Source: Hymenobacter psoromatis (GTDB taxonomy: Bacteria > Bacteroidota > Bacteroidia > Cytophagales > Hymenobacteraceae). From it: 64,000 bases of DNA. Shown here piece by piece: positions 12,727 to 22,336 of the stretch (position 1 is the first letter of the stretch; every line of letters begins with the position of its first letter). Both the position numbers and the translations under genes were made by a program. The DNA lies in NCBI GenBank assembly GCA_001596155.1, contig CP014771.1, positions 2,232,001 to 2,296,000 of the forward strand, given 5' to 3'. The notes under the pieces were generated by a model. It searched no databases. It was given only the letters and a program-made list of their open reading frames with translations, and had not been told where the DNA came from.

Positions 12727-13413
12727 CTACGCAAGAGAATCTGGCTTATGCCGCCGCCGGGTTTTTAATGCTGAGAACACTTCGGCACCTTCCAAATTAT
12801 CAGCACCAGCGGCTAAAACTACTTCGTACGCATTATCCAGACTTTCCATTTTCCAGCGCACAAGCAAGCCGTCCGAATTTAGATAGGAGTGCTGATACTC
12901 AAGCGCAGCTACTTCCGCTTTGCGCAATGCCTCTGTCTCAGAATGGCCTTTGAACAGCACGTAGCGCTCTTCGTATCTCTGTTTCCCTTTATCATAGCCT
13001 TCAATCTGAATTGCCACCGTCATTTTCACGCAGTAAAAATTCAGCTTCTTCCTAGGTTTAGCAATGCGTTTTTTCCTGCCGTTGGTTTCCTCTACTTGTA
13101 TAGATTGAACGGTAGCAAGGGCTGCTACCTCTTGCATATCAGCCACTTTAATCTGGCCCCTTATTCCGTGGTAACGGCCACGCTGCCCGCCGGTTTTAAG
13201 GAGTTGCCAATCTGACAACTTATTGATGGCCAGCACCGCATCAATTTCCGTTCGCATTGTATAGGTAATAAGCCCTTTACGCCCCTTCGGTGTCAATGCC
13301 AATAACTCTTCAGAAACCTTTGGGTAGGCCACGAAAACCGAAACGCTAGCTACTTGCTCGGTCAATGGCACCGCCGATAAATCCCAGTTTTCGAGCCCAG
13401 ATATCTTAGTCAT
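12727..13413 (-). CDS. DUF4288-like hypothetical protein
   Basis: A 228-residue protein. Residues about 120-200 look like the DUF4288 domain: NFYCVKMTVAIQIEG, then YEERYVLFKGHSETEALRKAE and ALEYQHSYLNSDG. The N-terminal 110 residues are different, starting MTKISGLENWDLSAVPL, and may be a separate domain. The start ATG 13413 is chosen over an upstream GTG because the upstream residues look like antisense of a neighbour. The gene is clearly less GC-rich than its flanks and lacks the GGGGTAGGG motif, which suggests acquisition from a lower-GC source. The function is unknown. Confidence 0.75.
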   Translation of the reverse strand: MTKISGLENWDLSAVPLTEQVASVSVFVAYPKVSEELLALTPKGRKGLITYTMRTEIDAVLAINKLSDWQLLKTGGQRGRYHGIRGQIKVADMQEVAALATVQSIQVEETNGRKKRIAKPRKKLNFYCVKMTVAIQIEGYDKGKQRYEERYVLFKGHSETEALRKAEVAALEYQHSYLNSDGLLVRWKMESLDNAYEVVLAAGADNLEGAEVFSALKTRRRHKPDSLA

Positions 13414-17659: not shown

Positions 17660-18994
17660 CTATTCCAACCCATACTTCGCGCGAAACTTGCGGTCGAGGG
17701 CAGTTTGCTTGCTCTCAAGCGTCAGGCTGCGGCCGTCGATGTAGGCCTGGGTGAGGGCGTTGGTGCGCATGTCAAGCAGGTCGCCGCGGCTCACGATGAG
17801 CGTGGCCGACTTGCCCACTTCGAGGCTGCCGTAGTCTTTGTCGATGCCCATAATCCGGGCCGGACTGAGCGTAATGGCCGTGAGCGCCTGCTCTTTGGTC
17901 AGCCCGAAAGCCACGGCCTGGCCCGCCACGAAGGGCAGGTTGCGCGAGCGTGAGGTTTCCTGGTCGCCCTGAAAATCGAGGCAGTAGCGGATGCCGGCGG
18001 CTTGCAGCTGGGCGGGCAATTTGTAGGGCTGGTCGTAGTCGTCGCCGTCGCGGCGGGGCAGGGCCTGCACCCGGCTCAGCACCACGGGCACGTCGTTTTG
18101 CTTGAGAAAATCGAGCACCATCCAGGCGTCGCGGGCACCTACCAGGGCCACTTTTTGCACGCCCAGGCGCTTGGCCATCCGCACCGACTCAATCAATTCC
18201 TTGCCGTAGTCGGCGTGAATATAGAGCGTTTTAGTGCCGTCGAAAAGGCCCGTCATCGCGCTCAGGCGCAGGTTTTCCTTGCGGCCGGCGGGCAGCTGCC
18301 GGTAGGCCGCGGCTTCACTCATCAGCTGCTCCAGGTCGCGGAGCTGGGCGGTGCGGGCGTCCTGGCGGCGGGTGAGGGCAGCGGCATCCTCAGCCGGGTT
18401 GGCCTTGATAACCATCGCGGGCCAGGTGATATGCAGGCCATCGTCGGCCTTCACCACGGCATCCTGCCAGTTCCAGGCGTCGAGCTGCACCACCGAGCTG
18501 GCCCCCGACAGGAAGCCGCCGCGGGGGGTAGGCTGGGCCAGCAGCACGCCGTTGATGCGCACGGTGGGCGTCACATCCGAGTCAGTATTGTAGGCGATGA
18601 GCGCGCGCACGTTAGGGTTGAGCGCGCCCACTTCCTCCTCGTCCACCGTAGCTCGCACGGCCTCTACCTCACTCAGCCCCAGCGTAGTATTCGGCAAAAT
18701 CAGCCCCGGATATACCTGTTGCCCGCTGACGTCGCGCGCCTCATAACCCGTTTGAGTGAAGCCCGCGCGCGGCCCGGCGTACACCAGCCGGCCTTTGTCG
18801 AAGGCCACGGCGGCATTCTCAATCACCTGGCCGGTGCCGGTGTGCAACGTGCCGCCCACCAGCACGATAGGCGCGGCCTGCGCTGGCGCGGGGGTAGGCA
18901 CCTGCGCGGCAGCGGCGAAGGGCGCGAACAATAACCAGTAGGGGCGGGGCTTGCCCCCGCCCAGCGTGCGCGCCAATTGTGATAGTTTAGTCAT
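17660..18994 (-). CDS. secreted amidohydrolase-family protein
   Basis: A 444-residue protein of the amidohydrolase superfamily, adjacent to a larger relative and probably co-transcribed. The N-terminal composite-domain strands are present (IVLVGGTLHTGTGQVIENA) and the C-terminal ones too (LSPARIMGIDKDYGSLEVGKSATLIVSRGD). The usual HxH metal motif after 'VYPGLI' is replaced by LPNTTLGLSEVE, so the metal centre looks degenerate and it may not be catalytic. The N-terminus is a signal peptide whose n-region (TLGGGKPRPYW) is encoded by one arm of an inverted repeat. Paired secreted amidohydrolases like this are common in Bacteroidota and often annotated imidazolonepropionase-like. Confidence 0.88.
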   Translation of the reverse strand: MTKLSQLARTLGGGKPRPYWLLFAPFAAAAQVPTPAPAQAAPIVLVGGTLHTGTGQVIENAAVAFDKGRLVYAGPRAGFTQTGYEARDVSGQQVYPGLILPNTTLGLSEVEAVRATVDEEEVGALNPNVRALIAYNTDSDVTPTVRINGVLLAQPTPRGGFLSGASSVVQLDAWNWQDAVVKADDGLHITWPAMVIKANPAEDAAALTRRQDARTAQLRDLEQLMSEAAAYRQLPAGRKENLRLSAMTGLFDGTKTLYIHADYGKELIESVRMAKRLGVQKVALVGARDAWMVLDFLKQNDVPVVLSRVQALPRRDGDDYDQPYKLPAQLQAAGIRYCLDFQGDQETSRSRNLPFVAGQAVAFGLTKEQALTAITLSPARIMGIDKDYGSLEVGKSATLIVSRGDLLDMRTNALTQAYIDGRSLTLESKQTALDRKFRAKYGLE

Positions 18995-19046
18995 TTGAGT
19001 GGACGATTTTGTTCAACAACGGGTGGGGGCAAGCCCCACCCCTACT
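18937..19046. repeat. inverted repeat pair spanning the start of an amidohydrolase gene (family B)
   Basis: AGTAGGGGCGGGGCTTGCCC at 18937 and the complement of AGTAGGGGTGGGGCTTGCCC ending at 19046 form a stem of about 26 bp with two mismatches and a long loop of about 57 bases. The left arm lies inside the signal-peptide codons of the gene at 17660-18994, and the right arm supplies the TAG stop (19042-19044) of the gene before it. The core matches the element at 3352-3439. Confidence 0.8.
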
Positions 19047-22000
19047 TCTCTTGCCCAATAGTATCGCAAGTCCAGTGGCCGGTGGTCTTCTCCCTGGCCG
19101 CTTGCGTAGGCGCGCCGGTTTTGCGGGCGGCCAGCATGGCTTGCACCAAGCGCTGGCGCTCCTGGTCGCGCTGCTGGCGCAGCTCCAGGTCTTTTTTCAG
19201 GCTGAAATACTCGCGGCCATCGACGAAGGTATTTTCGGCTTTAGCATAGATGCTCAGCGGGTTATCGCTCCACAGCACCACGTCGGCATCCTTACCCTCC
19301 TTGATGCTGCCCATGTGCGCGTCGAGGTGCAGCATCCGGGCGGGGTTGATGGTGACGAACTCCAGGCACTCGGTTTCGGGAATGCCGCCGTACTTCACGC
19401 TCTTAGCGGCTTCCTGGTTGAGGCGGCGGCTCATCTCGGCGTCGTCCGAGTTGATGGCCACGTTCAGGCCCACGCGGTGCATGATGGCGGCGTTGAATGG
19501 AATGGCGTCGCGCACCTCATTTTTATAGGCCCACCAGTCGGAAAACGTGCTGGCATTGATGCCGCGCGCCTTCATCTTGTCGGCCACCTTGTAGCCTTCC
19601 AGAATGTGGGTGAACGTGTTGACTTTGAAGCCCATCTGGTCGGCCACGTTCATCAGCATGTTAATCTCGCTCTGCACGTAGCTGTGGCAGGTGATGTGGC
19701 GCGTATCGTGCACCACTTCCACCAGCGCATCCAGCTCCAAGTCGCGGCGGGGCTGCTCGGCGGCGGCCTGCTGTTTTTTTGGTAACTTATTGTACATCAA
19801 CCAGTCTTTCTCGTATTGCTTGGCGCGGGTGAAGGCGTCCACGAACACCTGCTCGGTGCCCATGCGCGTTTGCGGGAAGCGCAGCACGTTCAGCTCGCCC
19901 CAATTGCTCTGCTTCACGTTTTCGCCCAGGGCAAACTTGATGAAGCCCGGCGCGTTGGCGATTTTCATCTCCTGGCCCGTCGCGCCCCAGCGCATTTTCA
20001 CCAGCGCCGACTGCCCGCCGATGGGATTGGCCGAGCCGTGCAGCAGCTGCGCGGCCACTACCCCCCCGCCAGGTCGCGGTAGATGCCCACGTCCTCGGGG
20101 TCAATGACATCGCCCACTCGCACCTCGCTGGTAACGGCCTGGGTGCCTTCGTTCACACCTTCGGCAATGGCCAGGTGCGAATGCTCGTCAATGATGCCCG
20201 GCGTGAGGTGCTTACCGGTGCCATCCAGGGTGCGCGCGCCGGCCGGGGCGGCCAGGTTCCGGCCGATTTTCTGAATCTTGCCGCCGCTCAGCAGCACGTC
20301 GGTATTCTCCAGCCGGCCGGCCTTTTCACTGGTCCAGACGGTGGCGTTTTTGATGAGCACCGGCTGCAGTACCGGCGGGCCGCCCAGGCCGTAGGCCCCG
20401 AGCGGGTAGCTCACCTTGCCCAGCACGAGGGGGGGTAGGGATTTGGCCGAGTCGCGGCGGGCCTGGCGGCTGGCCTCGTCGCGGCGGCGGGCGCGCCAGG
20501 TCACGGGCGTGCCGTCGGGCAGCTGGCCATCGCCACTAAAGGTCTTGCTCTCAGCCGCGTAGTAGCCGCTGAGGCGAATAGCGCCCGCGTTGGCGGGCGG
20601 CGTGCTGTTGTTGGTGGGCTTGGCGGGCTTCTTCTGAATTTTATCGGCGGGGTTGAAGACCAGCGTGGCCAACTCGGTGCTCACGGCGATGGAGCCGCGC
20701 ACCGTATCGCCGGCCGTGGGTAGTACGCGCAGCTCGGGCGTTTCGGGCTTGCCGCCCTGGATGAGCAGCGACATATCCGCGCCAATGCGAAACTCGTTGT
20801 CTTTTACCTTATTAGCCGTCACGATGCTCAGCGCATACACGCCCCGGTAGTCGGTGGGCAGCGTCGAGAGCTGGTAGCGTTCGCCCTGCACCCAGTTGTC
20901 GAGCAGCACCGTACTTTCATCGAGCAACGGGCGCGAGCAGATGAGGAAGTTGGCCACGAGGCCAGGGCGCAGGCTACCTACCTCATTCTCGGCGTGCAGC
21001 AGGCGGGCCGGCGTGGCCGTGAGGGCCTGCAGAATCTGCTGTTCGGTGAGGCCGTAGCGGGCGGCTTTGCGCACGTTGGGCCAGAATTTGGTCTTGTCCT
21101 TGAGGTCGGCCGCCGTGAAGCAGAAGGGCAGGCCGGCCTGGGCCAGCCGGGCGGCGTTGGCCGGGGCCTGCTCCCAGTGCTGCATGTCTTCGAGGGCAAT
21201 GCGCTGGGCATCGTACACATCGTCAACCTGATACGCCTCCGGGAAATTGACGGGCACCACGAACGTGGCCCCGGTGGTTTTCAGCTCGGGCAGGCGTTGG
21301 TACTCGTCGCCGTGGCCTTTGATAATGTACTGCACGCCGGCCTCGTCCCCTACCCTATCGGCGCGCAGCGCCGAGAGCTTGTCGCGCACCTCAAAAATGG
21401 CGGGCAGGCTTTTTTGGCGGCTCAGGGCCTGCAAGCTCAGGTTCTGCTCACGGCGCGGGTTGCGCTGGTTCCAGCTGGCGTCGAGGTAGGTCTGGCGCAG
21501 CAGCGCGATACTGCCCATCAGCGAGCTAGGGTAGTCCTGGGTCGAAGTGCCTTTATCAAACGACAAGCCGCTGGCGGCCCGGTCGAGCAAAAGCACCTCG
21601 TTTTCCTTGAGGTCCGTGTTGAGGCTCACCAACGCCGCCGTGCCGCGCATAATGCCGTCGGGCTGCTGCGTGAGCACCGCCCCGAAGCCCAGCTGCCGGT
21701 AGGCTTTGGCCTGCTCGGCGTTGATTTTGAACAGCTCAGCCGCGTTGGCTTCGGGGTGAATGGCTTGGTTCCAGTCGTAGGCCCCCGCCTTTTGCGAGTC
21801 GAACTGCGGGCCGCCGCCGCGCCGGCCGCGCCGCTCGGGAGCCTTGGTTTCGGGCACGCCGTAGCTGGTGAAAATATCGACCAGACCAGGGTACACGAAC
21901 TGCCCGCGCAGGTCGCGCACCACCGCGCCAGCCGGAATTTTAACCGAAGCTGTAGGCCCAACCGCCTCCACTTTTCCCTCCCGAATGACGAGCGTCGCGT

Positions 22001-22181
22001 CCTTCAGCTGGGTCTGGTAGTCAGTCTGAATGGTGGCGTGCGTGAAAGCGTAGAGGCCCGGCCGCTGGTCGTACACGCCGTTGCGGGGGTAGGTGCCGGG
22101 CTGCGCCAGCGCCGGCGCGGCCGCGCCCAGGCCCAGCAAAGCCAGCCCGGCGCGCAGCGAAAAAGAGAGCTTCGGAGTCAA
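19042..22181 (-). pseudogene. large secreted tandem-domain amidohydrolase, split by a 1-base frameshift
   Basis: Two frames, 20058-22181 and 19042-20058, join into one ~1045-residue protein of the two-domain secreted amidohydrolase family. A lipid-like signal region ends ALLGLGAAAPALAQ. The first domain (VVRDLRGQFVYPGLVDIFTSYG) lacks metal ligands. The second carries the HxH in TPGIIDEHSHLAI, and downstream metal-site segments HDTRHITCHSYVQSE, NTFTHILEGYKVADK and NSDDAEMSR. The break is in the run of seven G at 20061-20067: ...CTG GCG GGG GGG TAG. One extra G restores LAGGVVAAQLLHGSANPIGG. The split separates the HxH from the other ligands, so neither half should be active. Start TTG 22181 is preferred because a promoter box lies just upstream at 22243-22250. 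A sequencing error or phase variation remains possible. Confidence 0.85.
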
Positions 22182-22242
22182 GGTAGAACCAATAAAAAGC
22201 AACGGAGTAAAAAGCCGGCATCCACGCGGCCGACCCCTGCGC

Positions 22243-22250
22243 CAAAAGTA
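22243..22250 (-). promoter_or_regulatory. Bacteroidota -7 promoter box of the amidohydrolase operon
   Basis: On the minus strand TACTTTTG matches TAnnTTTG, about 62 bases upstream of the TTG at 22181. This makes longer starts upstream (to 22268) unlikely, since they would lie before the transcription start. Confidence 0.6.
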
Positions 22251-22336
22251 GCAGCGGGCGGGCACCAAGCTGCATCCTATCCCGAATTATTATCGTTTTT
22301 TTCAGGTAACTTTCTTTCTTCAACCGCTTCTTTCTC

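What the first reader, a model, noticed from the sequence alone, without database searches (positions are those of the whole stretch)
20055..20070. Poly-G frameshift splits a tandem-domain amidohydrolase in its metal site
The two halves read as one intact protein if a single G is added to the run of seven G at 20061-20067: the sequence ...DLAGG-stop becomes LAGGVVAAQLLHGSANPIGG, a perfectly continuous family segment. The break separates HxH (EHSHLAI) from the later His and Asp ligands, so each half should be inactive. The run is part of the genome-wide GGGGTAG motif, so the motif itself may be prone to slippage. Options are a real pseudogene, a phase-variable gene with a G7/G8 switch, or a sequencing error.
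Basis: partly seen in the sequence, partly recalled or inferred. Interest (0 to 1): 0.72.

Follow-up and report, generated by a model that had tools for sequence, protein, structure and literature searches.

The report
Amidohydrolase gene broken at G-tract
In this Hymenobacter genome one gene for an exported two-domain hydrolase is split by a one-base length change in a run of Gs, most simply an ordinary slip mutation or a leftover sequencing error; the run belongs to an odd short motif that is extremely common in a few related genomes.

Summary
On the minus strand a run of seven G (20061-20067) is followed directly by TAG, which ends a 707-codon frame; the rest of the same protein continues in another frame. 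In 79 of 80 relatives examined the gene stays in one frame here; nearest relative UV11 has eight G. Of 120 genus genomes, 57 carry the gene as one match, three in pieces (this one, G018, G118), 60 show none. The metal ligands are split as stated: HxH before the break; His, His, Asp after it. Both pieces are still constrained against UV11 (dN/dS 0.15, 0.10), with no other lesion: the break is recent, or an error. I rank a real slip mutation (0.5) over a consensus error (0.38); phase switching and recoding are unlikely. The tract arose from GGC GGC GTG-like codons by silent changes; it is one of thousands of Gn-TAG tracts in this genome. In a 1 Mb comparison with UV11 I accept, after sorting by eye, two mid-gene breaks, one in each genome, both in such tracts. 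The break is ordinary; the Gn-TAG motif, over 1600 copies in five genus genomes and at most 458 in the other 115, is the unusual thing.

The parts
20061..20067 (-). Run of seven G at which the frame breaks (C on the + strand)
   Evidence: UV11 has eight G at the same codons
20058..20064 (-). GGGGTAG motif; its TAG (20058-20060) is the stop of the upstream piece
20058..22181 (-). Upstream piece, 707 codons plus stop from the probable TTG start; first amidohydrolase domain plus the start of the second, HxH included
   Evidence: ORF; start inferred from residue 1 of the UV11 database protein aligning at residue 30 of the ORF; Pfam
19042..20058 (-). Downstream piece, 338 codons plus stop; rest of the second amidohydrolase domain
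20166..20186 (-). EHSHLAI with the HxH metal ligands of the second domain
   Evidence: EHSH in 76 of 76 long relatives
19672..19692 (-). TCHSYVQ, third His ligand by alignment with 3ooq
19597..19617 (-). TFTHILE, fourth His ligand by alignment with 3ooq
19435..19458 (-). AINSDDAE, Asp ligand by alignment with 3ooq
21858..21893 (-). YPGLVDIFTSYG, place of HxH in the first domain, without the His pair
17660..18994 (-). Next gene, a second amidohydrolase-like ORF (444 aa), unbroken; neighbour of this gene in the 8 relatives checked

Best explanation
One gene for an exported tandem amidohydrolase has recently lost its frame through a one-base change in the length of a G tract. Shown: the gene is one frame in nearly all relatives; the window's tract is one base shorter than that of UV11; the long tract is found only in these two, where other relatives have interrupted forms that code for the same residues. 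Inferred: replication slippage in the long G run removed a base in the sequenced strain, the TAG of the motif became an immediate stop, and neither piece has a whole metal site, so the enzyme is lost. The gene is dispensable in the genus, so the loss is tolerable.
For: Unbroken gene in 79 of 80 relatives and in 57 of the 60 genus genomes that carry it, out of 120. No other lesion in either piece. dN/dS against UV11 0.149 and 0.100, so the break is young; assignable amino-acid changes 22 on the window branch against 11 on UV11's (two-sided sign test 0.08, suggestive only). The compared part of the assembly looks sound: among 438 UV11 ORFs with relatives in 1.06 Mb of this genome I accept this gene as the one mid-gene break (sorted by eye). 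A like break lies in UV11, in a DCC1-like gene, also at a Gn-TAG tract.
Against: A homopolymer is just where consensus errors fall, and the continued constraint fits an unbroken gene as well as a young pseudogene. One break among 231 coding tracts of six or more G plus TAG is also what a low error rate would give. Passages of PMC3711429 count singleton frameshift genes as indel mutations or sequencing errors.
Confidence: 0.5

Rival explanations
1. Consensus error: the strain's gene is in frame and the assembly has the G tract one base short.
For: Long G tract; both pieces still constrained, dN/dS 0.149 and 0.100, not above the 0.176 of the whole gene between two other relatives; no second lesion. 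Another genome, G118, has three frame changes in this gene, one of them at the same codons in a shorter G run, which may be assembly error there.
Against: 40 of 43 compared coding tracts of seven or more G show no frame-changing indel against UV11, so a systematic homopolymer fault is unlikely; UV11 has a like break in another gene.
Confidence: 0.38
2. Phase-variable gene: the tract changes length at high rate and switches the enzyme on and off.
For: G tract inside the frame. In Campylobacter jejuni phase-variable genes have poly-G tracts of 8-11 (passages of PMC6097035), so the eight of UV11 is at the lower edge.
Against: Seven is below that range; the long tract is not conserved; the product is a predicted exported hydrolase, not an obvious surface structure; compared coding tracts mostly keep their frame.
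Confidence: 0.07
3. Recoding: ribosomes slip back by one on G GGG GGG just before TAG and make some whole protein, or restart at the GTG overlapping the stop.
For: The seven G are exactly G_GGG_GGG in the upstream frame and a -1 slip there leads into the downstream frame; stop and GTG overlap by one base.
Against: No conserved frame change: 79 of 80 relatives are in one frame. No unusual RNA structure: z +0.68 and +0.41 in the window, -0.92 in UV11. A G-rich slippery site is expected to be weak (recalled).
Confidence: 0.04
4. Two separate genes that lie head to tail.
For: The mechanical ORF list gives two ORFs with start codons.
Against: Relatives encode one protein and the metal site needs residues of both pieces.
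Confidence: 0.01

Closest known systems
Singleton frameshift genes / homopolymer-indel pseudogenes (GeneTack survey, PMC3711429, passages read)
   Same: A lone frame break relative to unbroken orthologues, at a homopolymer
   Different: Here the homopolymer is part of a motif found thousands of times in the genome
[quoted passage not shown]
   Same: G tract within the reading frame; one base more or less breaks the frame
   Different: Tract shorter than the 8-11 given there; not conserved in relatives; no sign of switching
Amidohydrolase 3ooq (solved structure) and the tandem amidohydrolases of Bacteroidota
   Same: Second domain aligns over its length with all ligand positions
   Different: Here a first domain without HxH precedes it, and the frame is broken between HxH and the other ligands
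Highly iterated palindrome HIP1 of cyanobacteria (PMC4390886, passages read) and DNA uptake sequences (PMC3630211, listing only)
   Same: A short motif hugely over-represented in some genomes and low in relatives
   Different: Those are motifs of fixed sequence, HIP1 a palindrome linked to methyltransferases; Gn-TAG is no palindrome and its G run varies in length

Membership tests
Amidohydrolase superfamily (PF01979, PF07969) | Profile match over the curated cut-off | tested here: met
   Both profiles over cut-off in both pieces: upstream 27.8 and 31.2 bits, downstream 52.4 and 38.7
Amidohydrolase superfamily (PF01979, PF07969) | HxH, two further His and an Asp as metal ligands, in one chain | tested here: not met
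   All positions are present but spread over the two pieces here; in one chain in 76 of 76 long relatives
Pseudogene by frameshift | Frame broken against unbroken orthologues | tested here: met
Pseudogene by frameshift | The break is in the organism's DNA | not testable with these tools
   No reads at hand
Pseudogene by frameshift | Loss of constraint after the break | tested here: inconclusive
   dN/dS 0.149 and 0.100; assignable changes 22 against 11, sign test 0.08
Phase-variable contingency locus | Long tract kept at the site in relatives | tested here: not met
   Seven or more G only in the window and UV11
Phase-variable contingency locus | Mixed tract lengths within a clone | not testable with these tools
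   No reads at hand
Programmed -1 ribosomal frameshifting | Slippery heptamer in the right frame | tested here: met
   G_GGG_GGG before TAG
Programmed -1 ribosomal frameshifting | Conserved frame transition in relatives | tested here: not met
   79 of 80 relatives in one frame
Programmed -1 ribosomal frameshifting | Stimulating RNA structure downstream | tested here: not met
   Simple folds not better than shuffles, z +0.68 and +0.41; pseudoknots not tested

The most novel reading that the evidence does not exclude
An unknown process writes Gn-TAG tracts all over the genomes of one Hymenobacter clade, in coding sequence through silent changes. The long G runs are slip-prone, so the motif carries a standing load of frame-breaking mutations (or a genome-wide set of weak switches), of which this gene and the DCC1-like gene of UV11 are two instances.
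Probability: 0.3. Interest if true: 0.72.

Novelty: new member of a known kind. Interest (0 to 1): 0.36.

Why it matters
By itself the broken gene is ordinary: a dispensable hydrolase lost, or miscalled, at a homopolymer. It matters as a case where a spreading short motif has made a weak point inside a conserved coding site, and because it points to the Gn-TAG motif, whose cause I do not know and whose patchy distribution within one genus makes it open to comparison.

Tried and rejected
Two-gene reading: rejected, relatives encode one protein. A second copy that could take over: not found; the DNA search of the genome gives this locus and two short stretches, the search with the upstream piece gives, besides the two pieces themselves, six weaker matches of at most 42 bits. 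RNA hairpin: not better than shuffles. Hyper-variable tracts: non-coding Gn-TAG tracts 13 of 52 with an indel, non-coding G runs of five or more without TAG 2 of 28, random non-coding windows 3938 of 19116; coding Gn-TAG tracts 11 of 333, coding G runs of five or more without TAG 8 of 266, random coding windows 224 of 19925. So coding G runs with or without TAG show about three times the indels of random coding windows, which speaks for run length rather than for the motif; some coding cases lie in poorly aligned stretches (seen).

Apparent frame changes set aside by eye: 11 of 13 rows in one direction and 4 of 5 in the other, as gene starts, intergenic joins or overlapping spurious ORFs; the rows kept are this gene (one) and the DCC1-like gene (one in each direction). 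One of those set aside, an ORF without Pfam match, abuts the end of the phytoene synthase. This sorting was manual and could hide a real break.

Truncated relatives in the protein database: of the 120 listed for the downstream piece (8000 scored) none exceeds 84% identity, so nothing is learnt about how common the window's form is; of the 120 listed for the UV11 protein (3441 found) the nearest are whole. Naming the genome through its plasmids gave no close record. Literature, open-licence papers only: none holds Hymenobacter with CTACCCC or with GGGGTAG.

Full report
What is there. The minus strand of the window reads GCG GGG GGG TAG at 20058-20069: seven G at 20061-20067, then the TAG of a GGGGTAG motif. 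The frame entering from upstream, ORF 20058-22268, stops at this TAG. ORF 19042-20058 begins with a GTG that shares one base with the stop. The probable true start of the upstream piece is the TTG at 22181, where residue 1 of the UV11 database protein aligns. The pieces then have 707 and 338 codons.

Whose genome. The window is C3:2232001-2296000 of a 5.45 Mb genome in three contigs. The nearest named relative is Hymenobacter sp. UV11. A paper puts a carotenoid cluster of H. psoromatis PAMC26554 (NZ_CP014771.1) at 2,213,495-2,233,264 (passages of PMC11925752). Here a phytoene synthase lies at about C3 2222516-2223358 and a flavin amine oxidoreductase, the type of a desaturase, next to it. So the genome is probably that strain; this is inference from coordinates.

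Relatives. A scan with the downstream piece found 192 relatives and kept 80. In 79 the frame is open through the joint; four of these run to the upstream end of their contig. The exception, H. coccineus (L036, the same contig as in G018 by its length), crosses the joint but breaks about 42 bases on. In 120 genus genomes, counted by hand from the list, 57 carry the gene as one match, three in pieces (G000, G018, G118), and 60 show no such match. Five of the 57 rows report one stop inside the match, with an open frame of 1046-1088 codons; I take these stops to lie at the match ends and did not check each. G118 has three frame changes in the gene, one at these same codons in a shorter G run.

How the tract arose. 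UV11 reads GCG GGG GGG GTA GTG here, with eight G. Of 38 other genus loci fetched, 37 show the searched sequence, with forms such as GCG GGC GGC GTG GTG or GCC GGC GGG GTA GTG. So the long run most simply arose by silent changes in the lineage shared with UV11, and the window, or its consensus, then lost one base.

What the protein is. Both pieces match the amidohydrolase families. The solved structure nearest in sequence is 3ooq; it aligns to residues 646-1032 of the UV11 frame, the second domain, with HxH, His, His and Asp facing each other, the last His and Asp by my reading of the alignment. These ligands are unchanged in 76 of 76 long relatives. The first domain has no His at the first HxH position in any of the 76; for the second position the list accounts for 73. 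HxH is on the upstream piece, the other ligands on the downstream piece. That each piece is inactive alone is inference. The next gene, 17660-18994, is amidohydrolase-like, unbroken, and a neighbour in the 8 relatives checked.

Age. Against UV11 dN/dS is 0.149 for the upstream and 0.100 for the downstream piece. The next gene has 0.044; the whole gene between two other relatives has 0.176. Amino-acid changes assignable with three outgroups fall 22 to 11 on the window branch, two-sided sign test 0.08. There is no second lesion. The break is recent on the scale of the split from UV11, or not in the DNA.

Is the genome broken elsewhere? I compared 1.06 Mb of this genome with 1.0 Mb of UV11 both ways; 438 UV11 ORFs and 433 ORFs of this genome had relatives, with 13 and 5 frame changes listed. 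After sorting by eye I accept two mid-gene breaks: this one, and a DCC1-like thiol-disulfide oxidoreductase gene that is whole here and in six of eight other genomes, not found in two (G055, G058), and in two pieces in UV11, parted at a Gn-TAG tract. Tracts of six or more G plus TAG make up 0.43% of the compared coding sequence here and 0.39% in UV11, 231 and 198 tracts. So both accepted breaks lie in the motif, one in each genome. But 231 of the 296 coding G runs of six or more belong to the motif, so motif and plain run length cannot be told apart. In a narrower comparison, coding G runs without TAG show indels about as often (8 of 266) as those with TAG (11 of 333), against 224 of 19925 random coding windows; non-coding Gn-TAG tracts show 13 of 52, random non-coding windows 3938 of 19116, non-coding G runs without TAG 2 of 28.

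The motif. In the 664 kb joined here 74 of 87 runs of exactly seven G and 37 of 40 of exactly eight are followed by TAG. GGGGGGTAG occurs 2370 times in this genome against 25 for the reversed pattern, 2361 in UV11, 2073, 1952 and 1646 in G058, G027 and G108, 115-458 in nine others, and at most 61 in the other 106 of 120. In an rpoB tree of 30 of the 120 the five rich genomes fall in one clade of six (support 95/92); the sixth, G101, has 37 copies and is sister to G027 (100/99). I found no account of it in open-licence papers.

Weighing. A real slip mutation and a consensus error predict the same sequence. For the first: few other breaks, a like break in UV11, a dispensable gene, more changes on this branch. 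For the second: the place is a homopolymer, the gene is still constrained, and lone frameshift genes are often errors. I put them at 0.5 and 0.38. Phase variation (0.07) lacks a conserved tract. Recoding at G GGG GGG (0.04) is possible but lacks conservation and structure.

Noticed in passing
Whole genome G000 and the genus; window positions: GGGGGGTAG occurs 1646-2370 times in five of 120 Hymenobacter genomes, 115-458 times in nine and at most 61 in the rest. In an rpoB tree of 30 genomes the five share a clade of six whose sixth member, G101 (37 copies), is sister to a rich one. Loss or repeated gain of some 2000 copies between sisters is unexplained.
   Followed up: partly
L255:10132-10560 (G000) and G080:C59 about 123313-123737: A DCC1-like thiol-disulfide oxidoreductase gene is whole in G000 and six other genomes but in two pieces in UV11, parted at a Gn-TAG tract.
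   Followed up: yes
L185 (G118:C2:73500-77500): G118 has three frame changes in the orthologous gene, one at the same codons as the window's break; decay or poor assembly.
   Followed up: partly
window 18935-19050: Two G+C-rich palindrome-like stretches, one overlapping the start of the next gene's ORF and one in the gap before it, seen by eye; they look like REP elements.
   Followed up: no
L276 about 13250-13345 and many places in G000: An element of about 90 bases, matching on both strands, recurs at some tens of places in G000 (most of the 79 rows).
   Followed up: no
L136:17757-19940 (C3 2229757-2231940, just left of the window): A ComEC-type competence gene (Pfam Competence, 193 bits); of interest if Gn-TAG were an uptake signal, which was not tested.
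   Followed up: no
window 21858-21893: The first domain of this tandem amidohydrolase family lacks HxH in all 76 long relatives, so it is probably non-catalytic throughout.
   Followed up: yes
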